The notes below the pieces were generated by a model. The model saw only the letters and a program-made list of their open reading frames with translations. It was not told the origin of the DNA and did no database searches. Positions 93-19,201 of a stretch of DNA of 64,000 nucleotides are shown in pieces. Location: NCBI GenBank assembly GCA_947173495.1, contig CAMWFQ010000019.1, positions 1 to 64,000 of the forward strand. The letters run 5' to 3'. Made by a program: the position numbers and the translations under genes. The stretch is from an uncultured Lachnospiraceae bacterium (GTDB lineage: Bacteria > Bacillota > Clostridia > Lachnospirales > Lachnospiraceae). The first letter of the stretch is position 1. Each line of letters starts with the position of its first letter.

Positions 93-1013
93 TTATCCTT
101 TCCCTTTATCAAAATGTGTAGCAGCTTCCTGCATGCATTCCAAAAATGCACGCTCAATGGCACGCCGGTTTTTTTCTCCGCCGGAGCGGTATACAAGATT
201 AACCTCGAGCCGAAGCTCCGGTTCAATGGGCAGAACAACTAACGCTTCATTTTCATGTTCCGCTATATGTTTCTCCGCAAACTCCCGCATGAGGAGTGCA
301 ATTCCCATTTTCCTTGCTGCAAGATTCAGCAGATTTTCTCCCCGGAAAGCGGTAGCTGCTACCCGGGGCTTTACCCGCTCCTTATCAAAAATACTCATGC
401 TGATCTGATACATATAGCTCCTCTTTTCGAAGAGAAGCAGCGACTCTTCCCGTAGCGCATGCGCAGTCAGAACCTGACGGGCTGCCAATGGGTGCTCCCT
501 GTGAAGAGCCGCCGCCAGCATATCGCTCCCAAAACAAAGCCTTTCCACACCCACATGGGATCTTTCATGCTCCATTACAAATGCAAAGCTGCTTTCCATC
601 CGGTACAGTTGGTCCCAATTCTTAAATGTGTCTTCTTCATGTACCCGAACCTGATACTCCGGGTATTGTTTCATGAATTTCCGAAGCGCCTCCGAAATCG
701 CATCTTCTTTTGTCATGCCCAGAGATGCTACATGCAGCACATTTCCCATACGCTCCTGCTCATTATGCAGATGCTTCCTGCACGCCTCGTCCATTTGTAC
801 CATCTGACGCGCATAGTCCAGAAAAATCTCCCCATATCGATTCAACTTCATCTTACGTGAAGCGCGTTCGAACAGCTCCACATTCACTTCATCCTCAATA
901 CTCCTCAAATGCCTGGAAAGAGAGGATGGGGTAACGTAGAGCCGTTCAGAGGCTTCAAATAAATCCTCATACTCCGCCATTACAATAAAATCCTTCAAAT
1001 ATTCCAATTCCAT
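93..1013 (-). CDS. LysR-family transcriptional regulator
   Basis: A 306-residue protein of normal LysR length. The N-terminal winged helix-turn-helix covers about residues 1-62 (ASERLYVTPSSLSRHLRSIE at about 21-40), and the rest is the periplasmic-binding-like effector domain. The start follows GAGGAAG at a good distance. It lies 16 bases downstream of a second LysR gene on the same strand, so the two are probably co-transcribed; their effector domains are clearly different. LysR proteins usually sense a pathway metabolite and activate a neighbouring divergent operon, here by inference the catabolic operon starting at 2177. The effector cannot be told from sequence. Confidence 0.9.
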   Translation of the reverse strand: MELEYLKDFIVMAEYEDLFEASERLYVTPSSLSRHLRSIEDEVNVELFERASRKMKLNRYGEIFLDYARQMVQMDEACRKHLHNEQERMGNVLHVASLGMTKEDAISEALRKFMKQYPEYQVRVHEEDTFKNWDQLYRMESSFAFVMEHERSHVGVERLCFGSDMLAAALHREHPLAARQVLTAHALREESLLLFEKRSYMYQISMSIFDKERVKPRVAATAFRGENLLNLAARKMGIALLMREFAEKHIAEHENEALVVLPIEPELRLEVNLVYRSGGEKNRRAIERAFLECMQEAATHFDKGKG

Positions 1014-1917: not shown

Positions 1918-2021
1918 AATCTTATCCTTCTTATTTCTGTTCCTGAAAATTCTGTGGTTTTCATTATTATACGCATTCTTCGACAATTTTAAAAGTATTT
2001 ATTCCATTCATGAGGCAGAGA

Positions 2022-2042
2022 CTTATTCCAATTTGTAATAAG
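2022..2042. promoter_or_regulatory. Candidate LysR box
   Basis: CTTATT (2022-2027) and AATAAG (2037-2042) form an interrupted dyad separated by 9 bases, a shape that fits the T-N11-A pattern of LysR sites. It lies between the divergent LysR gene and the catabolic operon, about 18 bases upstream of the predicted -35 box. Confidence 0.45.
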
Positions 2043-2059
2043 CCAAAACGATTTTCGAA

Positions 2060-2087
2060 TTGAATAGAATGGATAAAACTCTATAAT
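2060..2087 (+). promoter_or_regulatory. SigA-type promoter of the catabolic operon
   Basis: TTGAAT (2060-2065), a 16-base spacer and TATAAT (2082-2087). The predicted start near 2094 leaves a leader of about 80 bases before the first gene. The imperfect -35 and short spacer are compatible with an activator-dependent promoter. Confidence 0.6.
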
Positions 2088-2176
2088 TTAATCATAAAAA
2101 TTGTTTGAAATATCGGTGTATAACGGTATTCACAAGCAAAACGCCGTCAAAAAGCTTATTAAGGGGGGATGTAGAA

Positions 2177-3124
2177 ATGCAGCACTGTATCTATATGGTT
2201 CGAGACGAAGGTGAACTAATCTATAAATCAATGCTTGAAAAAGGATATACGGTTATTGTCGGGGATGGGAAAATGAACCTGGAATCTGTAAAGCAATGTG
2301 ATGCCCTGATACCCGGGAAAGCCCTTGTAACAGAAGAGGTGCTGCAAAATGCGCCAAATCTTAAAATCGTTTCCAAGTTCGGCGTGGGTATCGACAGAAT
2401 TGATATTCCCGCCTGTACGGCTCACAGAGTTTATGTGGCAAATACGCCTCTGGCAAACTACAATTCTGTCGCAGAGCATACAGTGGCGCTCATGCTTGCA
2501 GCTGCGAAACGAATTTATCCCATCTCTCTGCGGCTTCGCAATGAGTATCCTGACTGGATGGGCGCCCACGACTGCCAGGCATCGGAACTTTCCGGCAAAA
2601 CCCTCTCCTTAATTGGTTTCGGCAATATTGGAAGCCGTGTTGCCCACATGATCAGTGGTTTCCATATGAATATTATTGCCTATGATCCCTATATAGCCCC
2701 CTCGAAGATTCCGGACTATGTAACGCTGGTTCCTTCGCTGGAAGACGCCCTGCGCGCCGGCGATTTTATATCTATTCATGTTGCCGGCTCGGACAGCCGC
2801 ATCCACCTCATCAACATGGCGGAATTTAAGCTCATGAAGCCTTCCGCCATTATTGTAAATACGACACGCGGGTTCGTCATCAATGAGGCTGATTTAATCC
2901 AGGCACTAAGCACAGGTATGATTGCCGGAGCCGCCCTGGACGTTTTTACCACGGAGCCTGTGCAATCCGGCAATCCCTTATTGCTTATGGAAAATGTCAT
3001 TGCAACGCCGCACAGTGCGGCAAACACTCCGGAAGCAAGAATCCGGGCACAGATTGCATGCGCCGAAAATATTATTTCCTGCTTTGAGACAGGCCGGCCT
3101 GTAAATGCTCTGAATACACTATAA
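2177..3124 (+). CDS. D-isomer-specific 2-hydroxyacid dehydrogenase
   Basis: A 315-residue NAD-dependent dehydrogenase of the SerA/GhrA superfamily, interconverting a 2-hydroxyacid and a 2-ketoacid. The start is MQHCIYMVRD after AAGGGGGGAT; an upstream in-frame extension lacks a binding site. The central Rossmann domain shows GFGNIGS, and the catalytic residues are visible as Arg in NTTRG, Glu in TTEP and His in TPHSA. The substrate-binding N-terminus (GVGIDRID, VAEHTVAL) is typical. It is the first gene of an eight-gene operon, followed after 23 bases by a hydrolase. A role on a sugar-acid intermediate is inference; it is not likely to be biosynthetic SerA, since no ACT domain is present. Confidence 0.9.
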   Translation: MQHCIYMVRDEGELIYKSMLEKGYTVIVGDGKMNLESVKQCDALIPGKALVTEEVLQNAPNLKIVSKFGVGIDRIDIPACTAHRVYVANTPLANYNSVAEHTVALMLAAAKRIYPISLRLRNEYPDWMGAHDCQASELSGKTLSLIGFGNIGSRVAHMISGFHMNIIAYDPYIAPSKIPDYVTLVPSLEDALRAGDFISIHVAGSDSRIHLINMAEFKLMKPSAIIVNTTRGFVINEADLIQALSTGMIAGAALDVFTTEPVQSGNPLLLMENVIATPHSAANTPEARIRAQIACAENIISCFETGRPVNALNTL

Positions 3125-3147
3125 AAATAAACTCAGGAGGAAGAGAA

Positions 3148-4899
3148 ATGAACAAATACTATAATTATCCCGACTCTGACATCTGGCAGAGTCACCGATG
3201 GCAGGGTAAGATTGGCTGCGCCGATCCCTTAGTGCAATGGATAGAGACTCACGGCAAGCTTTCCGAAACCGGCTTTGTGCCCCCTGTCTGTGACGATCCC
3301 CACAGACATCCACACTACAGAGAAAAAACACACGGTATTGATCTGCCGGAGATTGTTCAATATTGGGCTGACCGGGGGATTCGTTATACCAGTCTGGAGC
3401 AGGGACGACAGGACTGGATCTCCATGGTTCCTGAAAAAGCTTTTTCAGACCGCAGCCGGAAGCTTCCGCTGCTTGTTTCCTTTTTTCACGAAGACACGCT
3501 GGATCCCTGGTACACCATGAAAACGATGTCCTATTATCGGAAATATAATGAAATGCTGGCCGTATCTCAGGACTTTATCATCGTCTATGTGGTAAGTTCG
3601 CGTGTGGATACAGACCGCATCTATATTAATCTAATGCAGGAGGCCTGCATCCTCTATCCCGTAGATCTGAATCGCATTTATCTGGATTTATCACCGGTTG
3701 CAGCCGCGGGTATGAAGCTGAAGGACATCCCCGGTTTTGTTTATAAAGATAAAGACGGTCACGAGATAGAAGATCCTGATGCCTGTATTGAGCGTTTTGG
3801 CAGCCTGAATCTTCCCGTAATCGACATCAGCGGGAGATGGGGGAATGCCGACAGCCTTTCCCGCGGCCTGGTCATGACCTACCGCATGAATGATGGCCGC
3901 TTTGACCGGGAATGGTTTCTTCACAGCGGTGTTGCGCGGCGCAGTTCTGAGGGACTCCTGATGGAAAATCGCTTTCTCTCGGTAGATGATGAGGGCTTTG
4001 GCGAATATTGGAATCATATGGGACTTTTATTTGAGGAAGGGGAAGCCCGCGGGGAGCGTTGGCTTGCATTTGTGCCAAAACAGGCTATGGAAGAACCTCA
4101 AAAAAAGCTGCCCGCTGTAATGCTTATGCAGGAAGTCTATCATGGAAACGAACATCTGGCTGTTACATCCTTAAGCTATTTCTATGAATACATGCATATT
4201 GCCGCGCAGGGTGAATGCATTCTGCTGTTCTTTGCCATGGAAGACTGGGATTCCAATGATCTTTTTGTTGATGTTCTCCAGGAGGCTGAAAATAAGTATC
4301 CCATTGATAGTACCCGCGTTTATATCACCGGCCATTCCCATGATGGCTGTTTCACATTCGAGTTTGCACGCCGCCATCCGGATATCATCGCTGCCGCCGC
4401 CACACTTGGAAATTCCGGCATCCTGATGCCTCCGGAAGTCTCCGGAGATAAATTTCTCTCTGTAGGCGACGACCGGCTGGAATCCATGTCCAGAATAGAT
4501 ATGCCGATGATTGTGGCCAACGCAATGTCTGAAGGGCATGTAGTTGCTCCGGATGATCCTGAACAATTTGCGTCCTGGGCCAGATTCTGGCAAAGACGTC
4601 TTACCGCGTCCAGATGCCCGATGAAAACTCCGGAGGAAATCCGTGCCGCCCGATACAGTAAAAACAAAGCTGAGCGTATCCTGGGCTTTCCCGCAGACTA
4701 TGCGGAAACTATTTGGGCAGATGGTGCGGAACACTATATGGCAGACGTTACAAATGTGGATGGCAACCGGCACTTACGTATCGTGACAAGCGAAAATATG
4801 CCGCATACCGTTACTCCCTTTATGATAGATATCACCTGGAATTTCCTCCGCAGATTTTCCAGAGACCAGGAAACCGGAGAAATTATAGAATTACAGTAG
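3148..4899 (+). CDS. Two-repeat alpha/beta hydrolase-like protein, paralogue 1
   Basis: A 583-residue cytoplasmic protein with no signal peptide. The C-terminal half looks like a PHB-depolymerase/LpqC-type esterase: RVYITGHSHDG puts a nucleophile at Ser397, HPDIIAAAATLGNSG follows, and NMPHTVTPF near the end could give the catalytic His. The N-terminal half repeats the same layout (YWADRG.., KLPLLV, SYYRKY, DRIYINLMQEA, LNRIYLD) but lacks the nucleophile motif, so the protein seems to be an internal duplication with one dead half. It is about 14 bases upstream of a paralogue with the same layout. The ribosome binding site is AGGAGG. The reaction is unknown; ester, lactone or related hydrolysis is inference. 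Confidence 0.8.
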   Translation: MNKYYNYPDSDIWQSHRWQGKIGCADPLVQWIETHGKLSETGFVPPVCDDPHRHPHYREKTHGIDLPEIVQYWADRGIRYTSLEQGRQDWISMVPEKAFSDRSRKLPLLVSFFHEDTLDPWYTMKTMSYYRKYNEMLAVSQDFIIVYVVSSRVDTDRIYINLMQEACILYPVDLNRIYLDLSPVAAAGMKLKDIPGFVYKDKDGHEIEDPDACIERFGSLNLPVIDISGRWGNADSLSRGLVMTYRMNDGRFDREWFLHSGVARRSSEGLLMENRFLSVDDEGFGEYWNHMGLLFEEGEARGERWLAFVPKQAMEEPQKKLPAVMLMQEVYHGNEHLAVTSLSYFYEYMHIAAQGECILLFFAMEDWDSNDLFVDVLQEAENKYPIDSTRVYITGHSHDGCFTFEFARRHPDIIAAAATLGNSGILMPPEVSGDKFLSVGDDRLESMSRIDMPMIVANAMSEGHVVAPDDPEQFASWARFWQRRLTASRCPMKTPEEIRAARYSKNKAERILGFPADYAETIWADGAEHYMADVTNVDGNRHLRIVTSENMPHTVTPFMIDITWNFLRRFSRDQETGEIIELQ

Positions 4900-4913
4900 A
4901 AAGGAGACTCATT

Positions 4914-6707
4914 ATGAATAATCTTTATTTTGACTATCCGGAACGTAAATATTGGGATCCAGATATGTGGACAGATTTCATCAGTCCTGTTTTCGGCCTT
5001 GTAAAATGGATTGGGTCTAATACCTCCATTGATCCTTCCCCCTACCCCTCTCCCGTAAACGGACTTTATGGTGCAGATGCCAAAGCCCTTGACTGCTATG
5101 ACCTGAAAACCAATGCGGTGAGTATCCCCGAGATTGTCCGTCACTGGAAGGACCGCGGCGTCTACTATGAATGCAGGAGTCAGGGCGGGCTTTACTGGCT
5201 GATCATGTGTCCCTGCAGATGTCTGGAGGACTTCGGAACCAAAATTCCCGCCCTGGTGGTTTTTCACACCACTGATGTCACAGATCCCTATTGGGCCATG
5301 AAAACTCTGGCGCATTATGAGACTTATAATGATATGGTTGCCCGGCAGCAGGACAAAATGATCTTTTATATCTGTTCCGACAAACCGGATACTGACCGTA
5401 TCTATGTAAATATTTTACAGGAAGCATTTGTTTTCGTCCCCGGAGATGTAAACCGCGTCTATATGGATGTCAGCGCAGTCTGCAATGCCGGCGTAAAGCT
5501 GGCCTCCATTCCTGAATTCACATACCGGGACAGCGAGGGAAATGTAACGGACCCCGATGCCTGTATCTTCAAGTTTGGCTCCGCTCAGATCCCGGCTCTC
5601 GACATTACAGCCCGCTGGGAAAACAAGACCAGCCTTACCAGAGATCAGGTTTCCATGGAGACCTGGAGTAACATAAACTATGATTTTGAAAGGGTTCTGC
5701 ACAGCGAAACCGGGCGTAAAATGGCTGAAGGCATTGCTTTGGAATACCGCTTTAACAAAACAACCGATCCCGACTTCCTTCAATACTGGGACAATATGGG
5801 CGTGAAGTACGAAAATCACGAAACTTCCTTTCATCGCTGGAAACTGGCTGTCCCGAAAAGCGCCTGTGATGATCCGGACGAAAAGCTTCCGGTTATCTGC
5901 ATTATGCAGGAGGTAAACCATGCCAATGAACATCTGGCCGTTACAGAAGCCAGTTATTTCTATGAATATTTCCGCCTCTGTGCCCAAGGCGCATGTATGC
6001 TGATTAATTTTGTCCTGGAAGATGCAGAGAGCAATGAGCTTCTGGTGGATATTATAAAAGAAGCAAAAGAGCTGTATCCCATGATGGATATGGCACGTAT
6101 CTATATTGCAGGACATTCTCACAACGGACATTACTCCCTTGCATTCGCCCTTCGTCATCCGGAATTGATTGCAGCGGTTGCTACCTACGGCAATCCTCCG
6201 GGACTGGCAAATATGGGTATTACTCCCATGTCCGAAGAACGCGCCGCCAAGGTAGCCGGATTTGATATGCCTGTCATCAATTTAGTCGGTATGTGCGAAC
6301 AGGGCTCCTATTTCCCTCAAAACTGCGACGGAACCGGCTACCGGTCCGAAAAATTTGCATACCGTATGTCCAGTTTTGAAGAACGGTATGCCGGCTGGCA
6401 GCTGCGCCTGAAAGCCTTTAATTGCCCGCCCACAACAAAGGAAAAGATGCTTGCGACGAAATACAGTGACGAAAAAGCGATTCGCGAGCTGGGCCTGCCG
6501 GGTGACCGCAGCCGGGTTCTGTATATGGATGGTTTTGAACTTTATGTTGTTGAGATTAAAAATTATGAGGGCAATTATCATCTGTGTATGGTGGGTATGG
6601 AGAATATGCCGCATAACACTACCCCTGCCCAGCAGGTTCTTTCCTGGAATTTCCTTCGCAGATTTGCAAGGGACCGGGAAACCGGAAAAATTATTGAAAT
6701 ATTGTAA
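4914..6707 (+). CDS. Two-repeat alpha/beta hydrolase-like protein, paralogue 2
   Basis: A 597-residue paralogue of the preceding gene. The start MNNLYFDYPE is preceded by AAAGGAGA and lies just after the upstream stop; a longer ORF reading into the upstream gene is rejected. The active half carries RIYIAGHSHNG with the putative nucleophile at Ser402 and ENMPHNTTP near the C-terminus. The N-terminal half repeats the fold elements (HWKDRGVYYE, KIPALVVF, DRIYVNILQEA, VNRVYMDVSAV) without the nucleophile. Two adjacent paralogues could form a heteromer or act on two successive bonds; this is inference. No signal peptide or membrane segment is seen. Confidence 0.8.
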   Translation: MNNLYFDYPERKYWDPDMWTDFISPVFGLVKWIGSNTSIDPSPYPSPVNGLYGADAKALDCYDLKTNAVSIPEIVRHWKDRGVYYECRSQGGLYWLIMCPCRCLEDFGTKIPALVVFHTTDVTDPYWAMKTLAHYETYNDMVARQQDKMIFYICSDKPDTDRIYVNILQEAFVFVPGDVNRVYMDVSAVCNAGVKLASIPEFTYRDSEGNVTDPDACIFKFGSAQIPALDITARWENKTSLTRDQVSMETWSNINYDFERVLHSETGRKMAEGIALEYRFNKTTDPDFLQYWDNMGVKYENHETSFHRWKLAVPKSACDDPDEKLPVICIMQEVNHANEHLAVTEASYFYEYFRLCAQGACMLINFVLEDAESNELLVDIIKEAKELYPMMDMARIYIAGHSHNGHYSLAFALRHPELIAAVATYGNPPGLANMGITPMSEERAAKVAGFDMPVINLVGMCEQGSYFPQNCDGTGYRSEKFAYRMSSFEERYAGWQLRLKAFNCPPTTKEKMLATKYSDEKAIRELGLPGDRSRVLYMDGFELYVVEIKNYEGNYHLCMVGMENMPHNTTPAQQVLSWNFLRRFARDRETGKIIEIL

Positions 6708-6722
6708 GGTGAGGAATCAACT

Positions 6723-8465
6723 ATGGAATATATTAACTTTTTCAGCCACGAAAAAATTTCTGACCGCCTGATTATTTTCAATGAAGGCTACTCGATGGTA
6801 CACCGTTTTACCATTGGCTGTATCCTGGGCGACCGGAAAATCATGATTATTGACGCCGGTCTTGGCATGACGGACAATTTCCGCCAGTATATCGAGAGTG
6901 TCGTAGGAACAGACAAGCCGTTTCTTCTTGCATGTACCCACCTGCACCCCGATCATGTGGGAAGCGCCATTCAGTTTGAGGAACGCTACTGCAGTCATCT
7001 TGATCAGGATAACCCTTCCCAGACAGCTTTTGCCTTCAGAGATGAGCAGCGACAGGCTGATCTGCAGGACTTTGCCCTGGACAGCCAGATTGTGATGGAA
7101 TACTGTAAATCTCACATGATCCGCAATAATCGCTGTGAATTTCTTGATATCAAAGACGGTGATATCTTTGACCTGGGAGGCGTTCAAATCGAAGCGATCT
7201 CCGTCCCCGGACACAGCAGGGGCTCTATGGCGTTCTATAACCGTGAGGAAAACTATTGTTTTACAGGAGACGCCATTAATACGGACACGCATCTCAAAAA
7301 GATGGATCGTGAGGGTTTTCGCCAATATAAAATAACGCTGGAAAAATTTATTTCCCGGGTAGATCATGATGTCACCATCTATCCGGCACATTTGCCAATG
7401 CCCATGACCATACAGGTTGCCGAAAATCTTCTTCTGATCTGTGACGATCTGATAAATAACCGTAATCTGCGGCGCGATCCCATGGGGGAGACAATTTTTC
7501 ACGGACGTCAGAATAATCGTGCCCTGCGTATGCATTACATTAACAACACCTGCATTGTTTATAACCGGGATATTCTTAACAGTGATCGAAGGATTTCTTT
7601 TCGGCCGACAAAAGACCTGAATTTTTACAGCCATGAAAAATGGACAGACCGGGTTTATACCGTTACCATTAATTTCTCTATGGTACACCGCATTACCCTC
7701 ATGGTCGTTATTGGGGACGATAAGATTCTCTGTATCGATTCCGGACACGGTATTGACTATAAGCTGACAGACTATATCCGCAGTTTTGCCGGCTACGAAA
7801 AACCGCTTTTCATGGCATGTACCCATGTGGGAATCGATCATGCCGGCGGCGGCGTACAGTTTAACCAGTATTATGTACATAAAAATGACTGGCCCAATCT
7901 GGAACGCAGTATGCCCAGATCCAAAAGGCTGGAAGACTGTCAGCCTTTCGCCCTCTATAATCAGGAATTCTATGAATACACAAAGGATAATATGTGTATG
8001 CCGCCTGATCCTGCAGGGCTTCGGGAGTTGAAAGACGGGGATATCTTTGATTTGGGCGGCGTTCAGGTTGTATGCATTTTTACGCCTGGGCACAGTCCCG
8101 GACATACTTCCTTCCTGGTCGAGGATGAAAACATTGTATTCACCGGCGATGCCATGAACATTGACACCCACTTAAAGAAACTGGACAGGCAGGGCATGCG
8201 GGAATATGCCGCTATGCTGGAGCATTTTATGACGCTCATCAAAGAGGATACTCTGATTTTTTCCTCACATCTGAACCGTCCGCACGACCTGAGCGTACCG
8301 CGAAATATTGCGACAGCCTGCCTTGACATTGCAGAAGGCCGGACAGAAGCCGATCCGCCTGCCGAGGCTATCCAGAAGCATCTCCCTGCCTTTCATAACC
8401 CGGCAATCAAGATGCATTACCATGGGAATTGCTGTGTCGTATACAATTCCGATTTAGTGAAATAA
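6723..8465 (+). CDS. Tandem metallo-beta-lactamase-fold protein
   Basis: A 580-residue protein made of two MBL-fold domains (about 1-290 and 291-580), each opening with INFFSHEK or LNFYSHEK. Domain 1 has the full metal motif THLHPDHVG (His73, His75, Asp77, His78), then GHSRG, TGDA and PAHLP. Domain 2 reads THVGIDHAGG, so the second His of HxHxDH is Gly370, while GHSPGH and TGDA are kept. Domain 1 therefore probably binds two metals and domain 2 is altered. MBL-fold enzymes of this kind hydrolyse esters, lactones or phosphoesters, or act as decarboxylases. Fifteen bases separate it from the hydrolase gene upstream. Substrate unknown. Confidence 0.85.
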   Translation: MEYINFFSHEKISDRLIIFNEGYSMVHRFTIGCILGDRKIMIIDAGLGMTDNFRQYIESVVGTDKPFLLACTHLHPDHVGSAIQFEERYCSHLDQDNPSQTAFAFRDEQRQADLQDFALDSQIVMEYCKSHMIRNNRCEFLDIKDGDIFDLGGVQIEAISVPGHSRGSMAFYNREENYCFTGDAINTDTHLKKMDREGFRQYKITLEKFISRVDHDVTIYPAHLPMPMTIQVAENLLLICDDLINNRNLRRDPMGETIFHGRQNNRALRMHYINNTCIVYNRDILNSDRRISFRPTKDLNFYSHEKWTDRVYTVTINFSMVHRITLMVVIGDDKILCIDSGHGIDYKLTDYIRSFAGYEKPLFMACTHVGIDHAGGGVQFNQYYVHKNDWPNLERSMPRSKRLEDCQPFALYNQEFYEYTKDNMCMPPDPAGLRELKDGDIFDLGGVQVVCIFTPGHSPGHTSFLVEDENIVFTGDAMNIDTHLKKLDRQGMREYAAMLEHFMTLIKEDTLIFSSHLNRPHDLSVPRNIATACLDIAEGRTEADPPAEAIQKHLPAFHNPAIKMHYHGNCCVVYNSDLVK

Positions 8466-8481
8466 GAAAGGGACAATAAAA

Positions 8482-9432
8482 ATGAAATCAAAAGTATTAG
8501 TGCAGCGAGAGCCCATTGAAGAATTGAGCAAAGCATACATGAAAGAGCTGAGGCTCTACAATAAAACAAAGAGGGAGTATGACGTTGATCCTTATGCAGA
8601 GGTCTTCCGGTTCCGTGACAATGTATACGGAATCTTCACCCACAGTGCAGATGGCATGGGGGATCCGTGGATGTATCTTATCATCGGACCGGAAAAGGCC
8701 ATGCTGATTGATACCAGCTTTGGCATCGGCAATCTGAAAGGACTTGTAGATGAAATTACCGGCGGCATGCCCCTGATTGTCGTGAACACTCATTCCTCTG
8801 TGGATCACTCCTATGGGAACTGCCAGTTCGACAAAGTGTACTGCCATAAAATAACCGCACCGTTCCTGGAAATGGAACAAACCCCGCATCTGTGGGATTT
8901 TCTTACAGATGAAAACGGAAATGGGATCTGGCTGGATTTTGATAAAAATGACATTATCCCCTTCAAAAAATATGAGATCGTTTCCTGCGAGAATCATCAC
9001 ATCTTTCATCTTGGCGATGATTATGACGTTGAGTTGATCTGGCTTCCCGGACATCATGCCGGGCATACCGGATTCCTGGACAAAAAAAGCCGAATCCTCT
9101 TCTGCGGAGATTCCTTCCTGAGCATGCGGGTAGGGATCAACGGTCCCCGCCCCGGTAAGCCCTATGGAGAATATTTTACGGTCCATGCCTTCCGGGATGA
9201 GCTGGAAAAATTAGTGCTGAGGCTGGATGAGTTCGATACTCTATTTCCAGGCCATTTTATTGTAGATATTGCCAACACTGTCATACCCAACATGCTGAAG
9301 GTCTGCCGCGATATCGTCGACAATCCTGAAAACTATGATTATATGTCGGTCGATACGCGCGGCCGAGAACAGAAATTCCGTTTTGTCAACGGACTCGGAA
9401 CGATTGCATATCGGGATGTGAGCGTAAAATAA
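8482..9432 (+). CDS. MBL-fold metallohydrolase with altered metal motif
   Basis: A 316-residue single-domain MBL-fold protein. The metal motif reads NTHSSVDHSYGN (His104, Asp108, His109), with Ser106 where the second His of HxHxDH is expected. The other ligands look present: PGHHAGHTGF, FCGDSF and FPGHF. It is related to the tandem protein just upstream and shares the same kind of substitution with that protein's second domain, so the change may be functional rather than decay. It starts 16 bases after the upstream gene with an AGAAAGGGAC binding site and belongs to the same operon. Confidence 0.85.
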   Translation: MKSKVLVQREPIEELSKAYMKELRLYNKTKREYDVDPYAEVFRFRDNVYGIFTHSADGMGDPWMYLIIGPEKAMLIDTSFGIGNLKGLVDEITGGMPLIVVNTHSSVDHSYGNCQFDKVYCHKITAPFLEMEQTPHLWDFLTDENGNGIWLDFDKNDIIPFKKYEIVSCENHHIFHLGDDYDVELIWLPGHHAGHTGFLDKKSRILFCGDSFLSMRVGINGPRPGKPYGEYFTVHAFRDELEKLVLRLDEFDTLFPGHFIVDIANTVIPNMLKVCRDIVDNPENYDYMSVDTRGREQKFRFVNGLGTIAYRDVSVK

Positions 9433-9452
9433 TTTTTCAAAGGAGGAGAAGG

Positions 9453-10361
9453 ATGATTACATTAAGCAGTGACCGTTTGAGAGTAGAAATTGCGGAGCCC
9501 GGCGTCTCTCCAAACAATAAAACCCGTTTTGACCGTGCCGGTTATATTTCGGATGTCATATTGGATGGCGGTATTTACTTCGCCGCTTCTGAACCCCGGA
9601 ACCTCGTTCATCCCTGTTCCGGCGGACGCGGCTTCTGCAATGAATTCCGCTTCGATGCCAGTGCTGAAGCTGCCATCGGAGAATATTTCCCCAAGCTTGG
9701 CGTAGGTCTTATTCGTAAGGAGGAAGACAAAAAATATATTTTTCACAGGGCCTATAAAGATGTACTTCCCTACCCGATCGAATATTCCTGCACAGCAAAT
9801 CAGGCTGTCTTCGTGACTTCTCCCATTCCCTGTCTGGGATACGCAGTCCGCACGACCAAAACAATCACCGTGGAAGGAAATTCCATAACTACAAAGATTA
9901 CTCTGGAAAATGTGGGAAACAAAGAAATTACCGTCAATGAATTTTGCCATAATTTCATCAGTATTGACGGAATGGCAGTCGGCTCTGATTATGAACTGAC
10001 TTCTCCCCGTTTCCCTGAAATAAAAAAAGAGCGGCTGAATAACCGGAGAGGCTTCTCCGGTTCCATGCGCGGCATCGGACGCGGAATCAGTTTCTGTGAG
10101 TTCACAGCGATCGATACCGATTATGCAGTTCTGGGATGTGACCTGGAACAGACTGTTCCCTTTACCTGGCGGATGATTCACAAAGGGGCGCGCGCGTACG
10201 TGGAAGGCGAGGACTATTTTATTCCCAAGTTTGTGTCCATCTGGGGGGTCGATCATATCATGTCGCCTGAAATTATTCATGAATTTACGGTCAAACCGGG
10301 CGGGGAGCATTCCTGGAAACGGGTATTGAGATTTAATACATATTACAGAGAGGTGAATTAA
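9453..10361 (+). CDS. Galactose mutarotase-like (aldose-1-epimerase fold) protein
   Basis: A 302-residue protein with the beta-sandwich look of the aldose epimerase superfamily: an N-terminal stretch RAGYISDVILDGGIYF, a core TITVEGNSITTKITLENVGNKEITVNEFCHNF and a C-terminal EFTVKPGGEHSWKRVLRF. The HNF motif in the core may contribute the catalytic His, but I cannot assign it firmly. Such proteins interconvert sugar anomers or bind carbohydrate. AGGAGGAGAAGG gives a strong start, and the stop is one base from the next gene, so translation is probably coupled. It is distinct from the DUF4432 protein at 13668-14735. Confidence 0.7.
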   Translation: MITLSSDRLRVEIAEPGVSPNNKTRFDRAGYISDVILDGGIYFAASEPRNLVHPCSGGRGFCNEFRFDASAEAAIGEYFPKLGVGLIRKEEDKKYIFHRAYKDVLPYPIEYSCTANQAVFVTSPIPCLGYAVRTTKTITVEGNSITTKITLENVGNKEITVNEFCHNFISIDGMAVGSDYELTSPRFPEIKKERLNNRRGFSGSMRGIGRGISFCEFTAIDTDYAVLGCDLEQTVPFTWRMIHKGARAYVEGEDYFIPKFVSIWGVDHIMSPEIIHEFTVKPGGEHSWKRVLRFNTYYREVN

Positions 10362-10362
10362 T

Positions 10363-11748
10363 ATGGGAAGTACTACTGCTGTCAGCACCAAAAAAGTGGG
10401 CTCCAATCTGACGGAAGGGCCTATTCTCAAAACCCTTCTGATTTTTGCAGGTCCTATCGTCTTAACAAACATCATCCAGCAACTCTACTCCATGGTCGAT
10501 TTGATGGTTATCGGACAGTTTGCCGGAAGCAACGGCACCGTAGGAGTCTCTTCCGGCGGTGAAATTGCCGATATGGTTACTCCAATCGCAACTGCCTTTT
10601 CCAGTGCCGGTCAGATTTACATTGCACAGCTGTTTGGCGCGCAGATGACAGAAAAAATTAAAAAGGGAGTTGGAACCTTACTTACCATGATGCTGTGTAT
10701 GTCCCTGGTTTTTATGTGCATTACCATTCTTCTCTGCGTGCCGATTCTGCATCTGCTCAATTGTCCAGCGGAAGCAATGTCTCAGGCCAAATCATACATG
10801 ATTATCTCGGCAGTCGGTATGCCATTTATCTTCGGCTACAATGCCGTATGCGGCATTCTGCGCGGAATGGGAGAATCCAAGCGTCCTCTGATTTTTATTA
10901 TCATTGCTGCAGTCATCAATATTGTTCTGGATATTATCTTTGTTGTAGTTTTCCGAATGGCGGCGGCAGGTACAGCTATTGCAACCGTCCTTGCGCAGTG
11001 CGGTTCGTTTACAGCCGCCTTTTACTTTATGTATAAGCGAAGGGAGCAGTTTGATTTCGACCTGAAGCGCTCTTATTTCAAAATTGATAAAAATGCCTTT
11101 GGCATTATTGTTCGTCAGGGTTTACCCCAGGCTACACGCTCAATGTTTGTGCGCTTCTCCCTCTTATGGGTGAACTCCCATATCAACAGCTATGGCCTTG
11201 TTGCCTCCGCCACAAACAGCATTGGAAACAAGCTCCAGAAATTCCTGGAAGTGTTTTCGTCAGGTGTGTCCGCCGCATCCGGAGCAATGGTCGGCCAGAA
11301 CCTTGGCGCCAAAAAGCCCGACCGGGCAGCCAAAACCGTATGGTGCACTTTCGGATGTACCTGTGTGTGTGCAGCCATTTTAACAATCCTTTCCCTGTCT
11401 ATACCCGAGCAGCTTTTTCGGGTTTTCACCAAAGACAGTGAGGTATTAGCGATGGGGGCTCTCTATATGCGTATTATCATATTCCATTTTATCTGGTCGG
11501 CGGTTGTGGGCGCTTTCCAGTCCATGGTAACCGGAAGCGGCTATGCCTCTATGAATTTCATGATCGGGATCCTAGACGGAGTCGTCTGTAAAGTCGGTTT
11601 CAGCTACCTGTTCGCAACGGTCATGGGCATGGGTTTATTTGGATACTTTCATGCCATTGCGTGGTCCAGAGCTCTTCCCGGTCTTATCTGCTTCATTTTC
11701 TTCATAAGTGGGAAATGGCGAAAACGAAAGCTGTTAAGTGAGCAATAA
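10363..11748 (+). CDS. MATE-family multidrug/metabolite transporter
   Basis: A 461-residue polytopic membrane protein with about twelve hydrophobic segments and the duplicated MATE layout: PILKTLLIFAGPIVLTNIIQQLYSMVDLMVIGQF at the start and the equivalent RQGLPQATRSMF near residue 250. MATE carriers are cation-coupled antiporters that export organic cations or metabolites. Position inside a catabolic operon suggests export of a product or of an inhibitory aglycone, or an uptake role; this is inference. It follows the mutarotase-like gene with a one-base gap. Confidence 0.9.
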   Translation: MGSTTAVSTKKVGSNLTEGPILKTLLIFAGPIVLTNIIQQLYSMVDLMVIGQFAGSNGTVGVSSGGEIADMVTPIATAFSSAGQIYIAQLFGAQMTEKIKKGVGTLLTMMLCMSLVFMCITILLCVPILHLLNCPAEAMSQAKSYMIISAVGMPFIFGYNAVCGILRGMGESKRPLIFIIIAAVINIVLDIIFVVVFRMAAAGTAIATVLAQCGSFTAAFYFMYKRREQFDFDLKRSYFKIDKNAFGIIVRQGLPQATRSMFVRFSLLWVNSHINSYGLVASATNSIGNKLQKFLEVFSSGVSAASGAMVGQNLGAKKPDRAAKTVWCTFGCTCVCAAILTILSLSIPEQLFRVFTKDSEVLAMGALYMRIIIFHFIWSAVVGAFQSMVTGSGYASMNFMIGILDGVVCKVGFSYLFATVMGMGLFGYFHAIAWSRALPGLICFIFFISGKWRKRKLLSEQ

Positions 11749-11769
11749 GTCAACAGGAGTAAATTATTT

Positions 11770-12639
11770 ATGGAATATATTACACTGAACAATGGTATAC
11801 AAATACCTGCAACCGGATTTGGCGTTTTCCGGATTCCGGAAGGAAAGGACTGTGTGAATGCTGTACTGGATGCGATTGAAAGCGGCCACCGTATGTTTGA
11901 CACGGCTCAGGGCTACTGGAATGAGTCGTCTGTAGGTGAAGCGATCCGCATAAGCAAAATAGAACGTCAAAGTCTCTTTTTGACCACAAAGATCTGGATG
12001 AGCCGCTATGAAGAGGCGGACGCTTACCGCTCCATATCTGAATCTATGGAAAAGCTGCAGACAGATTACCTGGATCTGGTACTTCTGCATCAGCCTGTGG
12101 CTGACTATTACAGCGCCTATCGCGCTTTAGAAAAGCTATACCTAGATGGAAAAGTCCGTGCTATCGGCGTCAGCAATTTCAGCCCGGCACAGCTGGCAGA
12201 CCTGTCCCTGTTTCATAAAATCACTCCGGCTGTCAACCAGATCAGACTTACTCCCTTTTTGCAGGAAGTTCCTGCAGAGGCTGTTCACAGAAAATATCAG
12301 GTCTGCATGGAAGCCTATGCGCCCCTTGGCGCCGGAGACCCGGAGCTTCTTACAAATCCGGTGCTCATTGCAATCGGAAATAAATATGGTAAGTCCCCTG
12401 CGCAGATCATTTTAAGATGGCTGTATCAGCGGCAAATTATTACGATTACCAAATCGACTCATATAGATCGGATGCGGTCAAATATTGCTCTTTTTGATTT
12501 TGCGCTGGACGCTGAAGATATCGGCCAGATTTCTGCTCTGAACAGGCAGCGGGACAATCCCCCTGCAGAAAATCCTGCTGATTATCCCGAAAAAATGAAA
12601 AGTCTTATGGAGCGGGAAGCCTATCGCTTCGCAAAATAA
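11770..12639 (+). CDS. Aldo/keto reductase
   Basis: A 289-residue NADPH-type aldo/keto reductase of the AKR5-like group. The active-site residues can be seen: Asp and Tyr in FDTAQGYWNE, Lys in FLTTKIW and His in LVLLHQP; cofactor binding is at ITITKSTHIDRMRSN. It reduces or oxidises a carbonyl/alcohol pair on a sugar-like or small-aldehyde substrate, not defined here. It is the last gene of the plus-strand operon, 21 bases after the MATE gene, and is followed by the shared hairpin terminator. Confidence 0.9.
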   Translation: MEYITLNNGIQIPATGFGVFRIPEGKDCVNAVLDAIESGHRMFDTAQGYWNESSVGEAIRISKIERQSLFLTTKIWMSRYEEADAYRSISESMEKLQTDYLDLVLLHQPVADYYSAYRALEKLYLDGKVRAIGVSNFSPAQLADLSLFHKITPAVNQIRLTPFLQEVPAEAVHRKYQVCMEAYAPLGAGDPELLTNPVLIAIGNKYGKSPAQIILRWLYQRQIITITKSTHIDRMRSNIALFDFALDAEDIGQISALNRQRDNPPAENPADYPEKMKSLMEREAYRFAK

Positions 12640-12682
12640 TCTTTACAGTTTCCATATTCATCCGACCTATTTTCAATATATT

Positions 12683-12749
12683 TTATTCCTCCTGTCGAGC
12701 CAAATGGACATGCAGGCATGTCCGCTTGGCTCGTTGCTTGCGGGAATAA
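12683..12749. terminator. Bidirectional terminator between two convergent operons
   Basis: Nested inverted repeats: TTATTCC (12683-12689) with GGAATAA (12743-12749), GAGCCAA (12697-12703) with TTGGCTC (12726-12732), and GGACATGC (12706-12713) with GCATGTCC (12716-12723). It sits exactly between the plus-strand operon ending at 12639 and the minus-strand operon ending at 12752, and has A/T-rich flanks on both sides. Confidence 0.65.
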
Positions 12750-12751
12750 AT

Positions 12752-13606
12752 TTACAGATTAAACTCTCTCCTTAATGTCTCCTCCATAATATCCACAGGC
12801 GCTTCTACCCCTGTCCAAAGCGTAAAGTTCAATGCACCCTGGTTTACAAGCATCCCCAGACCATTGATCGTCTTCGCCCCGCGTTTCTTTGCCTCCTGTA
12901 AAAACAAAGAATTCGGATCGTTAAAAATCACATCCGTTACGACCATTCCAGGCGCTATGGTATCATAATCTATATCAGGCTTCTCATTGACATTGGGATA
13001 TAAACCTACCGATGTAGCATTTGACAATATATCAGTGTCTGCAGGCACGCAGAATGATTTGTCCCACATTATAAACTCTGCTTCCGCCGAAGTTCTGTCA
13101 CGCAGCAGTTTAACCAGTTCTTCTCCCTGCTCCCGTATAATATTGGCAATTGTAATTTTTCTGGCTCCTGCCATCGCACACTCCACGCTGATCGCACGCG
13201 CTGCTCCTCCTGCTCCCAAAATCGTTACGTGCTTTCCTTTGACGGAAATATTTGCCTTCTCTAATGAAGTAAGATAACCCTTACCATCTGTGTTTTCCCC
13301 CCACAGACGCCCTCCGTTATTTACCACCATATTCACCGCTCCAATAATCTGCGCAGCAGGCGACAGCTCGTCTAAATATTTTAACACCTCCACTTTATGT
13401 GGAATTGTCAGATTAATCCCCCGCATATTCATTGCACGAACTCCCGACATTGCTTCTTTAAGGTCTCCCGGCTCTACTTTGACAGTAAGATATCTATAAT
13501 TCAGTCCTTTCGCAGCAAAGGCCGCTTCCTCCATCACCCCGGTAGGATTTTCATCGACAGGGCAGCCGAACCCGCCTACCAGTTCAGCTCTATAATTATT
13601 TGGCAT
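12752..13606 (-). CDS. Shikimate dehydrogenase-like oxidoreductase (AroE paralogue)
   Basis: A 284-residue protein of the shikimate/quinate dehydrogenase family. The catalytic Lys71 (NLTIPHK), Asp107 (NTDG) and the nucleotide loop GAGGAA at 131-136 are present, as is GLGMLVNQGALNF. The N-terminal substrate motif normally HSxSP is replaced by GCPVDENPTG (residues 14-23), so the paired Ser residues that hold shikimate are missing. It lies at the end of a transport/catabolic operon rather than among aro genes. An oxidoreductase for a shikimate-like or cyclitol substrate is therefore more likely than biosynthetic AroE, though this is inference. Confidence 0.85.
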   Translation of the reverse strand: MPNNYRAELVGGFGCPVDENPTGVMEEAAFAAKGLNYRYLTVKVEPGDLKEAMSGVRAMNMRGINLTIPHKVEVLKYLDELSPAAQIIGAVNMVVNNGGRLWGENTDGKGYLTSLEKANISVKGKHVTILGAGGAARAISVECAMAGARKITIANIIREQGEELVKLLRDRTSAEAEFIMWDKSFCVPADTDILSNATSVGLYPNVNEKPDIDYDTIAPGMVVTDVIFNDPNSLFLQEAKKRGAKTINGLGMLVNQGALNFTLWTGVEAPVDIMEETLRREFNL

Positions 13607-13667
13607 AATTCTTCTCCTTTTCTATCATACGCTGTAAAATTTTCACCTCTGTATTCCGCACATCCTC

Positions 13668-14735
13668 TCATGCAATTTTCCCCTCATAAAAGCGGATCGC
13701 TTCACAGATCTCCTCCTCTCCCTCATGCACTGTTACTGTAACACTGAAGTTACAGCTTTCCCCCGCTTTCAGAACAGGCAGGGTTCCCTGTTTCCGATTC
13801 TTTTCTCTTCCTATGGGGGGACAGTTCATCGGTTCTAAGGTAACCAGATAGTTTCCGCTGCAAAGATGTTTCCACAGGCTGAGTCTTGGAAGACTGGCCG
13901 CACTAAACTGCAGGGTAATGCCCAGGCCCAGCTTCAGATTATATAATGTCGCCCTTGTTTCCCCGTTCCTGTTGTTCATGCAATGCGTATATGCACGCTC
14001 TTTATAGCCGGCTTCCGGCACATCAAATACGTATGCCTGTTCAATCGTCTGCTTTGCTAATGGTGAAGTCCCTTCTACTGATTGTGCATCTGCGCAAAAC
14101 CGTGCGTCCGGCCCTACCAGCGGATAGCCAAAATTCATATGGTAAATCAGCATAAGGGGACTCGGATCTGCCCCTAAATTTGTAATTCTATCCTCAATAT
14201 GGATTTCATTTTTCCCGAAGATGGACCAAATATGGCGCTCCAGCAAAATATGATCGGCCAGGGGAAAAGCATATCTGATTTTTCCTCTTATATGTATATA
14301 GTACGTATCTTCTTTCCACTCACCCCAGGTACATATTTCTTCTCCGGGGGTATGTCCAATACTACCGTGAAGTCCGTATTCTATGCCTTCATCACAGCTT
14401 GGCGGCCCCGCTGTGTGTAAACCGCAGGTGGTAAGAAGTCCGCCTGTAAAAGTGTCGCGCCAGTGCATATCAGCGCTATTGCAATAAGCCGGAGCCGCAA
14501 CACCGGCATTTGATATCCAGGATAGCGGAACGCCTTTATAAATCATTTCTGCAATATCACAGCAACGATCCGGAAGAACCGTATAGGATAAACCTGTGCC
14601 TGTATGGACCTCCACAGCCTCTGTACCTTTTCCTCTTCCTTCACTGAATCGATATTTCTTAAAAGGAGCGGCATGATTTTCACTGCTCATATATTGCAGA
14701 AATTCTTTTCTGTCCAATTCATACCACATCCGCAT
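13668..14735 (-). CDS. DUF4432-family mutarotase-like protein
   Basis: A 355-residue protein of the DUF4432 family, related in fold to aldose-1-epimerases. Recognisable motifs are LPDRCCDIAEM, GVPLSWISNAG, WRDTFTGGLLTTCGL, GLHGSIGH and LEPMNCPPIG. The start MRMWYELDRK follows GAAGGGGTGAG; 31 upstream in-frame residues overlap the preceding gene and are excluded. Only four bases separate it from the aldo/keto reductase. The family is common in sugar catabolic clusters of Firmicutes, and some members isomerise or epimerise sugars; the substrate here is unknown. Confidence 0.85.
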   Translation of the reverse strand: MRMWYELDRKEFLQYMSSENHAAPFKKYRFSEGRGKGTEAVEVHTGTGLSYTVLPDRCCDIAEMIYKGVPLSWISNAGVAAPAYCNSADMHWRDTFTGGLLTTCGLHTAGPPSCDEGIEYGLHGSIGHTPGEEICTWGEWKEDTYYIHIRGKIRYAFPLADHILLERHIWSIFGKNEIHIEDRITNLGADPSPLMLIYHMNFGYPLVGPDARFCADAQSVEGTSPLAKQTIEQAYVFDVPEAGYKERAYTHCMNNRNGETRATLYNLKLGLGITLQFSAASLPRLSLWKHLCSGNYLVTLEPMNCPPIGREKNRKQGTLPVLKAGESCNFSVTVTVHEGEEEICEAIRFYEGKIA

Positions 14736-14739
14736 ATTC

Positions 14740-15723
14740 TCACCCCTTCTTTTCCTGAACTGCCGGCTTTGCTGAGCTTGACAAATCTGCTTTCCCTTCA
14801 TCCAAAATAGACATTCGATATAATTCATACCATTCCGCTCTATTTAAGGTTACCTCTGCCGCACGACAAATATCTCGTAATCTGCCCGCATTGGTTGTCC
14901 CTATTAACGGCTGAATATGCGCCGGATGCCGTAGCAGCCATGCAATTGCAATAACAGAGGGGGAAACATTTTTTTCTTCCGCCATACGGTTTACGGCTGC
15001 ATTTAAATTGGGATATCCTTCATTTCCCATAAATACACCTCCGTAAAATCCAAACTGAAACGGACTCCATGCCTGGACCGTCATATTCTTCAGGCGGCTG
15101 TAAGTAAGCGCATCCCCTGTCTTATCCACGTTTGCCGCATCTTTAAGGCGCATTGTGAAACTGGAATCAATGAGATCTGTATGGGCAACACTGATCTGTA
15201 GCTGATTAATTATCAAATGCTGGTTAATATATTTTTGCAGTAATTCTATCTGCAGCGGTCGATGGTTACTGACACCAAAAAAGCGTACTTTTCCACTTTG
15301 ATGTAACCGGTCAAATGCTTCCGCTACTTCCTCTGGTTCGACCAGTGTATCTGCCTGATGCAGTAAATATGTATCCAGATAATCTGTATTCAGTCTTTTT
15401 AAACTCTTTTCTACAGATGTAATAATGTAGTCTCTTGAAGAATCATTATAAAGTGTCTGAACCTCGTCCCGCACCAATGTACATTTAGACTGAAGCTGAA
15501 TTTTTTCACGCAGGGAAGAATGTAAATCCAGAATCTGCCCAAACATCTCCTCTGATTTTCCCATTCCATAGACATCTGCATGATCAAAAAAAGTAATTCC
15601 TTCTTCCAGTGCCGTATTCACTGTACCGGATGCAGTTTCCATATCTACACGCGCAATACGCATACATCCCATTGCCAACACGCTGGTCTCTAATTCTCCA
15701 TTTCCGATTTTCATTGTTTTCAT
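14740..15723 (-). CDS. Aldo/keto reductase (YdhF-like)
   Basis: A 327-residue NADP-dependent aldo/keto reductase. Catalytic residues are visible: Asp and Tyr in FFDHADVYGMGKSE, Lys in IQLQSKC and His in DTYLLHQAD; the C-terminal IQPLIGTTNAGRLRD binds the cofactor phosphate. The start MKTMKIGNGE is chosen because GGAGGAAATACAT precedes it. It is different from the AKR at 11770-12639 (a different subfamily) although the two operons converge. It comes 17 bases after the LIV transporter ATPase gene and four bases before the DUF4432 gene. Confidence 0.9.
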   Translation of the reverse strand: MKTMKIGNGELETSVLAMGCMRIARVDMETASGTVNTALEEGITFFDHADVYGMGKSEEMFGQILDLHSSLREKIQLQSKCTLVRDEVQTLYNDSSRDYIITSVEKSLKRLNTDYLDTYLLHQADTLVEPEEVAEAFDRLHQSGKVRFFGVSNHRPLQIELLQKYINQHLIINQLQISVAHTDLIDSSFTMRLKDAANVDKTGDALTYSRLKNMTVQAWSPFQFGFYGGVFMGNEGYPNLNAAVNRMAEEKNVSPSVIAIAWLLRHPAHIQPLIGTTNAGRLRDICRAAEVTLNRAEWYELYRMSILDEGKADLSSSAKPAVQEKKG

Positions 15724-15740
15724 ATGTATTTCCTCCATTT

Positions 15741-18229: not shown

Positions 18230-18244
18230 TTATCTTATCCCTCC

Positions 18245-19123: not shown

Positions 19124-19142
19124 AAGTAAACCTCCTTTTTCT

Positions 19143-19201
19143 GTAATGCCCTCAAGCACCAGCCAGCTCAACTAAAGCAAAGCTGGCGCTTATGGCATTA
19201 C
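19143..19201. other. Intercistronic stem-loop between binding protein and permease genes
   Basis: GTAATGCC (19143-19150) pairs with GGCATTAC (19194-19201), and AAGCaCCAGC (19154-19163) pairs with GCTGGcGCTT (19182-19191). Such a structure can stabilise the upstream message or attenuate transcription into the permease genes. Confidence 0.5.

What the first reader, a model, noticed from the sequence alone, without database searches (positions are those of the whole stretch)
2177..12639. Eight-gene catabolic operon with unfamiliar enzyme set
Tight spacing (1-23 bases) joins a 2-hydroxyacid dehydrogenase, two large two-repeat hydrolases, a tandem and a single MBL-fold protein, a mutarotase-like protein, a MATE carrier and an aldo/keto reductase under one promoter beside a LysR gene. 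I recognise each fold but not the set as a known pathway. The mix fits breakdown of a glycoside- or lactone-like natural compound, with export of a product.
Basis: partly seen in the sequence, partly recalled or inferred. Interest (0 to 1): 0.7.

Follow-up and report, generated by a model that had tools for sequence, protein, structure and literature searches.

The report
Probable ester-degradation gene operon
A bacterium of the family Lachnospiraceae carries an eight-gene set, partly shared with scattered relatives, that probably dismantles ester- and lactone-bearing sugar compounds with enzyme types I found no description of, so it may mark an unexplored chemical ability of such bacteria.

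Summary
The operon is real: eight genes at 2177-12639 with gaps of 23, 14, 15, 16, 20, 1 and 21 bases, beside two LysR genes. The two large hydrolases match no Pfam family. Each is an internal duplication: a C-terminal esterase domain with a full triad (H1: Ser397, Glu462, His553) behind a pseudo-domain that lost the nucleophile elbow. The tandem MBL protein joins one half with the complete metal motif to one lacking its second histidine; two relatives carry a similar pair as separate adjacent genes.

The exact operon was not found elsewhere, but its core recurs. Of 19 loci with the twin hydrolase (window included), 14 have an MBL gene within 10 kb, 9 an Opp-type binding protein and 11 a MATE or MFS carrier. 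All 5 genomes with a full-length hydrolase, of 397 family genomes, carry the close MBL subfamily within 10 kb of it; only 10 of 397 have that subfamily. Relatives add carboxylesterases, a lactonase-like propeller, and rhamnose isomerase. A likely importer orthologue lies on another contig of this genome.

Best reading: import, deacylation and delactonisation of acylated sugar-containing compounds, sugar use, and export of the remainder. The substrate is unknown. New variant of a known kind.

The parts
93..1013 (-). LysR-family regulator 2
   Evidence: Pfam HTH_1 and LysR_substrate; LysR pairs also stand before the importer genes in L040 and L096
1030..1986 (-). LysR-family regulator 1, divergent from the operon; likely start at 1917
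   Evidence: Pfam HTH_1 and LysR_substrate
1966..2093 (.). divergent promoter region: sigma-70-like sites at 2060-2087 (+) and 1993-1966 (-)
   Evidence: consensus scan, 10 of 12 each; consensus only
2177..3124 (+). D-isomer-specific 2-hydroxyacid dehydrogenase (HADH)
   Evidence: Pfam 2-Hacid_dh and 2-Hacid_dh_C; 39% to an HADH gene beside the L095 cluster
3148..4899 (+). H1, twin-domain serine esterase-like protein, 583 aa: pseudo N domain, C domain with full triad
   Evidence: AF2 model pLDDT 92.1; Foldseek to PHB depolymerase/feruloyl esterases; Ser397, Glu462, His553 conserved
4914..6707 (+). H2, twin-domain serine esterase-like protein, 597 aa, separate clade from H1
   Evidence: 44% to H1; 69% to L021, 60% to L028, 58% to L022; tree
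6723..8465 (+). tandem MBL-fold protein, 580 aa: half 1 HLHPDH (complete), half 2 HVGIDH (second His absent)
   Evidence: Pfam Lactamase_B; 69% to L028 over full length; half 1 is 58-60% identical to separate genes in L095 and L022
8482..9432 (+). single MBL-fold protein, HSSVDH motif (second His replaced)
   Evidence: Pfam Lactamase_B; 76% to L095
9453..10361 (+). mutarotase-like protein, no Pfam family
   Evidence: AF2 model, best-ranked Foldseek hits mostly mutarotases/aldose 1-epimerases; 69% to L021
10363..11748 (+). MATE-family carrier
   Evidence: Pfam MatE; 72% to L021, 63% to L095
11770..12639 (+). aldo/keto reductase, nearest DkgA/DkgB by score
   Evidence: Pfam Aldo_ket_red; NCBIfam DkgA below its cut-off, 201 of 425 bits
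12682..12750 (.). hairpin between the convergent genes AKR and aroE-like
   Evidence: RNA fold of 12637-12755, -34.5 kcal/mol, no control

Best explanation
The operon encodes the intracellular part of an import-deacylate-delactonise-export pathway for acylated, sugar-containing compounds, most likely plant-derived. Inferred order of steps: an Opp-type ABC importer (a likely orthologue lies elsewhere in this genome) brings the compound in; the twin-domain serine esterases H1 and H2 cut acyl-ester bonds; the MBL proteins open a lactone or cut a further ester; the mutarotase-like protein equilibrates the freed sugar; HADH and AKR reduce or oxidise hydroxy-acid, keto or aldehyde products; the MATE carrier expels the part that is not used. 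Shown here: gene order, folds, catalytic-residue patterns, co-occurrence and the importer's similarity. Inferred: substrate class, order of steps, direction of transport and the regulatory role of LysR.
For: H1/H2 keep Ser-Glu-His in the C domain and the H1 model resembles PHB-depolymerase, feruloyl and acetylxylan esterases. Neighbours in related loci are rich in further esterases: COesterase in L028, L036, L095 and L096, a CE1-type Esterase in L023, a DLH/BD-FAE-like one in L096, YdjC in L021. Genome G223 (L096, L097) is not among the 13 hydrolase-bearing genomes; there other esterases stand beside the same MBL-mutarotase-MATE-importer set, as if filling the slot. Sugar side: mutarotase fold; propeller lactonase in L027, L095, L096; L-rhamnose isomerase over the NF002203 cut-off in L032 and L036, with a class II aldolase and an FGGY kinase in L036. 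Transport: Opp binding protein within 10 kb in 9 of 19 twin-hydrolase loci, MATE or MFS in 11 of 19; own-genome set at G000:C33:208-5745, 75-81% identical to L096 except its binding protein (50%). Co-occurrence: the 5 genomes with a full-length hydrolase all fall among the 10 of 397 with the close MBL subfamily, hypergeometric 3e-9.
Against: No substrate is shown. HADH and AKR are not conserved as orthologues, so their steps may be strain-specific. No importer lies in the operon; the set on C33 shares no end overlap with C19. An MBL gene is absent within 10 kb of the hydrolase in 5 of 19 loci, and the L042 member counted as MBL has lost its metal motif. The FGGY kinase of L036 does not score as a rhamnulokinase (65.7 of 528 bits), and L036's isomerase is just under the second model's cut-off (574 of 585). 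A GH5 gene beside the hydrolase in L034 shows glycosidic bonds may matter there. MATE carriers are best known as drug exporters (recalled), which also fits detoxification. The score limits of the 5-of-10 test were set after seeing the scores (gap from 232 to 111 bits); at E 1e-15 as many as 55 of 397 genomes match the MBL query.
Confidence: 0.5

Rival explanations
1. Detoxification: the operon inactivates an ester- or lactone-bearing antimicrobial natural product and pumps out what remains; LysR senses the toxin.
For: MATE carrier in the operon, MFS or MATE in 11 of 19 loci, patchy distribution: none of 36 same-genus genomes has a full-length copy, 5 of 397 family genomes do. MBL-fold enzymes act on plant benzoxazolinones: a Fusarium MBL1 degrades BOA (stated in a passage of PMC11297187).
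Against: An Opp-type importer accompanies the genes in 9 of 19 loci, and sugar-catabolic genes (RhaA, aldolase II, FGGY kinase) stand beside them in L032 and L036; a detoxifier needs neither.
Confidence: 0.2
2. Phenolic-ester special case of the best reading: hydrolysable tannin, chlorogenic-type or other hydroxycinnamate esters; esterases free the aromatic acid, the sugar or cyclitol is used, the aromatic part is reduced, decarboxylated or exported.
For: Fold near to feruloyl esterases among others; fumarate/urocanate-reductase-like FAD protein with FMN_bind in L021; UbiD decarboxylase in L035; aroE-like gene next to the operon.
Against: No UbiD found in the window's own genome; I saw the FAD/FMN_bind reductase only in L021 and UbiD only in L035; the aroE-like gene is on the other strand, convergent.
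Confidence: 0.25
3. Side-chain removal from hemicellulose: H1/H2 are acetylxylan or feruloyl esterases acting on imported xylo-oligosaccharides.
For: CE1-like fold; one record title names goat omasum (L041), and isolate prefixes of others suggest rumen or termite gut (recalled, not in the titles).
Against: One glycoside hydrolase (GH5, L034) among 38 neighbours scanned in other twin-hydrolase loci; does not explain MBL, MATE and HADH.
Confidence: 0.12

Closest known systems
CE1 / PHB-depolymerase-type esterases (e.g. PDB 8daj, 9byu, 3wyd)
   Same: alpha/beta-hydrolase fold, nucleophile Ser after a strand, acid and His at the expected places
   Different: no Pfam hit; NCBIfam far below cut-off (31 of 150 bits); motif G-H-S-H-[ND]-G rather than GxSxG; a second, inactive-looking repeat in front; best TM normalised to the query 0.33 in the 50 hits listed
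MBL-fold lactonases (AiiA, BxdA) and glyoxalase II-like hydrolases
   Same: HxHxDH with downstream His, Asp, His in half 1 of the tandem protein; BxdA is a lactonase in a plant-compound gene cluster (PMC11297187, passages)
   Different: half 2 and the single MBL lack the second His; all listed scores below NCBIfam cut-offs; homology to BxdA itself not tested
Galactose mutarotase / aldose 1-epimerase superfamily
   Same: fold, TM to query 0.57-0.59 with 3dcd, 3q1n and 4bze; two homologues outside the module lie near GH9 and GH94 genes
   Different: no Pfam match; 6-14% identity over the 50 Foldseek hits listed, which also include YidC and GH36 proteins of like fold
Gut C-glycoside deglycosylation clusters (dgp/dfg)
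   Same: Lachnospiraceae, plant compounds, small oxidoreductases
   Different: no Gfo/Idh/MocA oxidoreductase among the window proteins scanned, though one stands in L031 (Pfam) and its homologue in L035; the words esterase and lactamase do not occur as word starts in the main text of PMC11170127

Membership tests
CE1/PHB-depolymerase-type esterase (H1, H2) | passes a curated family cut-off | tested here: not met
   Pfam none; NF050058 31.2 of 150 bits for H1 and 22.9 for H2
CE1/PHB-depolymerase-type esterase (H1, H2) | Ser-acid-His triad on the hydrolase fold | tested here: met
   Ser397 and His553 invariant in 26 rows, Glu462 in at least 90%; fold of H1; activity not tested
CE1/PHB-depolymerase-type esterase (H1, H2) | strict GxSxG elbow | tested here: not met
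   GHSH[ND]G in the full-length twin members bar L025 (GHSHNA)
MBL-fold hydrolase, tandem protein half 1 | complete HxHxDH plus His, Asp, His ligands | tested here: met
   HLHPDH, PGHS, GDA, AH
MBL-fold hydrolase, tandem half 2 and single MBL | complete HxHxDH | tested here: not met
   HVGIDH and HSSVDH
N-acyl homoserine lactonase (AiiA type) | passes NCBIfam cut-off | tested here: not met
   AttM 45 of 390 bits, AiiA 32 of 375 bits
Mutarotase superfamily | fold | tested here: met
   Foldseek hits
Mutarotase superfamily | aldose 1-epimerase activity and catalytic His/Glu | not tested
   conserved His and Glu exist but were not mapped onto GalM
dgp/dfg C-deglycosylation system | Gfo/Idh/MocA oxidase plus DgpBC lyase | tested here: not met
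   no Gfo/Idh/MocA domain in the ten proteins scanned; DgpBC homology not tested

The most novel reading that the evidence does not exclude
A previously undescribed kind of catabolic module for acylated sugar compounds, marked by two new protein architectures: an esterase made of a pseudo-esterase and an active esterase domain, and an asymmetric MBL pair in which one partner keeps and the other lacks the second zinc histidine, encoded as two genes in some bacteria and as one fused gene in others. In both, an inactive copy may serve to hold a bulky substrate or to shape the partner's site.
Probability: 0.45. Interest if true: 0.7.

Novelty: new variant of a known kind. Interest (0 to 1): 0.5.

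Why it matters
Much bacterial chemistry on plant and dietary compounds has no assigned genes (general knowledge). Here a set of co-occurring enzymes, the signature one without a Pfam family or a full-length PDB counterpart, with importer and carrier genes, gives a testable entry: two enzymes to purify, a regulator to probe and named strains with related clusters (Diplocloster agilis, D. modestus, Faecalicatena faecalis) to grow.

Tried and rejected
A single-protein scan of genome contigs found no relative; the four-row alignment then gave 26 loci. I considered that C33 (importer) abuts C19 (this operon), since LysR-LysR-importer is the order in L040 and L096 and both contigs begin at these genes; a test for shared contig ends found none, and a hairpin with a T-rich tail seen by eye after the second LysR gene would close that unit, so the join is unproven. 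I considered the C-glycoside systems (rejected) and urolithin/ellagic-type lactone chemistry (UbiD seen only in one relative, none in the own genome). The Opp binding protein gave no substrate hint: among the 60 of 97 hits shown are opine, heme, dipeptide, nickel and chitin binders alike. The cupin-like family of relatives gave no Pfam hit (one member), no NCBIfam hit (one member) and no PDB hit (profile of eight). Eight paper searches (one search was about agrocinopine import) listed no description of the set. Recent transfer is not plain from G+C: operon 47.5% against 44.9% for the rest, near the top of the range of equal windows (42.3-47.7%).

Counting notes: the 19 loci are those held with at least one hydrolase of 500 aa or more by my ORF caller, the window included, duplicates of the same contig removed (L017, L033, L048) and the broken L037 left out. 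L021, L023 and L027 come from one MAG, and L028 and L042 from another; several flanks are cut by contig ends. Only the binding protein counts as importer: L095's lies just outside the 10 kb, and L024 holds other importer genes but its contig ends before a binding protein. The window's own AKR was added by hand to that table, and AKR there means fold, not orthologue. The ORF caller merged or clipped some starts (H1 was hidden by an upstream start of H2 and put back by hand). L022 and L036 carry Anaerolineales and Acidobacteriaceae labels, but they are MAG contigs and could be misbinned. That the window's family is Lachnospiraceae follows from G051 (same family), whose contig length equals that of the Diplocloster agilis record; that it lives in a gut is my assumption.
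Full report
What is there. The window is G000:C19:1-64000 of a 4.58 Mb genome in 52 contigs. Between 2177 and 12639 eight genes run on the plus strand with gaps of 23, 14, 15, 16, 20, 1 and 21 bases. Two LysR genes lie on the minus strand just before. Pfam recognises the 2-hydroxyacid dehydrogenase, both MBL proteins, the MATE carrier and the aldo/keto reductase, but neither large hydrolase nor the mutarotase-like protein.

The large hydrolases. H1 (583 aa) and H2 (597 aa) are 44% identical. Weak NCBIfam hits point to PHB-depolymerase-type esterases, far below cut-off, and phmmer to PDB gives LC-Est1C at 4.8e-7 over 51 residues. An AlphaFold model of H1 from 26 family rows has pLDDT 92.1; Foldseek finds PHB depolymerase, feruloyl and acetylxylan esterases, with TM to query of at most 0.33 in the 50 rows shown, as for a match to part of the protein. 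The halves are homologous (hhalign 99.6%, E 9.8e-25, 21 members), and the alignment shows a gap in the N half where the C half has its nucleophile elbow. In the C half, the Ser of GHSH[ND]G and the His of the NMPH-like motif are invariant in 26 rows, and Glu462 is at least 90% conserved. So each protein is most simply a pseudo-esterase domain fused to an active one. The catalytic assignment is from sequence and fold; no activity is shown. A tree puts H1 and H2 in two separate supported sets (5 rows, 100/99; 6 rows, 100/100). L028 also has a neighbouring pair with one from each set, while the pairs of L021 and L024 come from one set each, so the pairing is old or repeatedly re-formed.

The MBL proteins. 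The 580-aa protein has two MBL halves. Half 1 keeps HxHxDH (HLHPDH); half 2 lacks the second His (HVGIDH). L028 and L025 show the same pattern in one gene (HLHPDH/HVGIDH, HCHSDH/HGAIDH); in L024 it is half 1 that looks damaged. In L095 and L022 a like pair stands as two adjacent genes (HNHPDH then HGAIDH; HLHPDH then HGNIDH). The first of each is clearly nearest half 1 (58% and 60%); the second shares the missing His with half 2 but is about equally like either half (45% to half 2 and 44% to half 1 in L095; 45% and 48% in L022). So fusion of two genes is one reading and duplication within a gene another. The single MBL has HSSVDH, while relatives vary at that place (HSHFDH, HATFDH, HCSxDH). 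I read the pair as two partners that are both needed; this is inference.

The other genes. The mutarotase-like model (pLDDT 81.5, five rows) has mutarotases and aldose 1-epimerases as most of its best-ranked hits. It is 69% identical to L021, 51% to L071 and 29-37% to copies in L095, L096 and L097. In a phylum sample 5 of 398 genomes match at E 1e-8 or better, the window's own included. The MATE carrier is 72% identical in L021 and 59-63% in L095, L096 and L097.

Distribution. In a search of 98 genomes (own plus relatives) 10 match H1 at E 0.001, but none of 36 same-genus genomes has a full-length copy; the best there is a partial match at E 2.4e-24. In 397 family genomes 13 match the profile at 1e-20, of which 5 have a full-length hydrolase. 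The single MBL query matches 55 of 397 genomes at 1e-15; the close subfamily (at least 40% identity and 230 bits; next hit 111 bits) occurs in 10 of 397. All 5 full-length hydrolase genomes are among these 10 (hypergeometric 3e-9; limits set after seeing the scores), and in all 5 the two genes lie 1.8 to 9.5 kb apart (coordinates). Public genomes gave 26 loci, including Diplocloster agilis, D. modestus and Faecalicatena faecalis, other Lachnospiraceae, and MAGs labelled Anaerolineales and Acidobacteriaceae.

Neighbourhood. Over 19 loci with a twin hydrolase, the window included: MBL 14 of 19 (one of them, in L042, without metal motif), Opp-type binding protein 9, MATE 8, AKR-fold 7, MFS 6, cupin-like 6, LysR 5, GntR 5, FMN-dependent dehydrogenase 4, mutarotase-like 3, COesterase 3, HADH 3, YdjC 3, propeller lactonase 2, FGGY kinase 2, GFO oxidoreductase 2, LacI 1. 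The fullest counterpart is L095: importer, COesterase, MBL (76% to the window's), MBL pair, mutarotase-like, propeller lactonase, H2-type hydrolase, MATE, and an HADH further on. L028 has tandem MBL (69%), COesterase, H1-type, H2-type, alcohol dehydrogenase, AKR and a further single-domain relative. L096 and L097, of genome G223, which is not among the 13 matched genomes, hold importer, other esterases, MBL, mutarotase-like and MATE. L032 and L036 carry L-rhamnose isomerase over the NF002203 cut-off, L036 with a class II aldolase and an FGGY kinase that does not score as a rhamnulokinase.

Importer. The window has no such importer next to the operon, but G000:C33:208-5745 encodes a full set: permeases 78% and 77%, ATPases 81% and 75%, binding protein 50% identical to L096, followed by an S10-type serine hydrolase and a zinc alcohol dehydrogenase. 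Whether C33 and C19 are neighbours in the genome is open.

Mechanism. The simplest account is import, cleavage of several acyl-ester bonds, lactone or ester cleavage by MBL enzymes, entry of the freed sugar into metabolism and export of the rest. Esterases of different families stand beside the same companions, which argues that ester cleavage is the constant job. The sugar side rests on the mutarotase fold, and on propeller lactonase, rhamnose isomerase and kinases in relatives; the own genome has one rhamnose isomerase, on C25, not linked. Glycosidases are rare: 1 of 38 neighbours scanned with Pfam in other twin-hydrolase loci is one, GH5 in L034; not all neighbours were scanned. Detoxification, phenolic esters in particular, and hemicellulose deacylation remain as rivals.

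Known systems. [quoted passage not shown] Two Fusarium gene clusters for benzoxazolinone detoxification are the subject of PMC4726666 (search listing and start of abstract only). Catenibacillus C-deglycosylation clusters differ (PMC11170127, abstract text and passages shown by the search). In what I saw, none has this set. Opine import in Agrobacterium uses a related binding protein, AccA (PMC4526662, start of abstract only). Absence from print is limited to the named searches of an open-access library.

Verdict. Real, conserved as a flexible module rather than as an exact operon, functionally unassigned, chemically plausible as an acylated-sugar degrader. Interest 0.5.

Noticed in passing
12752-24290: Convergent minus-strand set: URO-D-like protein, Liv-type ABC transporter (binding protein by Pfam, the rest by eye), aldo/keto reductase, DUF4432, and an aroE-like shikimate dehydrogenase (over the TIGR00507 cut-off) whose N-terminal motif, read by eye, lacks the usual Ser-x-Ser; a regulator that clusters with a LacI protein and an FGGY kinase follow at 21760-24290. 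A second catabolic-looking island.
   Followed up: partly
L018:1200-6488: Genes that read by eye as nitrogenase-like reductase subunits with an ABC transporter lie beside the hydrolase-MBL-cupin cluster of this contig, on the other strand.
   Followed up: no
L026:11873-13087, L032:11796-12968, L036:18505-19691: A pair of cupin-like proteins (about 209 and 170-183 aa) with an invariant AxxEFHLGEG motif in eight aligned members, no Pfam, NCBIfam or PDB match in the members searched; at least one stands beside the twin hydrolase in 6 of 19 loci.
   Followed up: partly
L024:2668-4524: Tandem MBL homologue whose first half has lost several metal ligands (NGRRDH, GV), the reverse of the window's asymmetry.
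   Followed up: no
G223 (L096, L097): One family genome holds five copies of the close MBL subfamily at several places but is not among the genomes with a twin hydrolase.
   Followed up: partly
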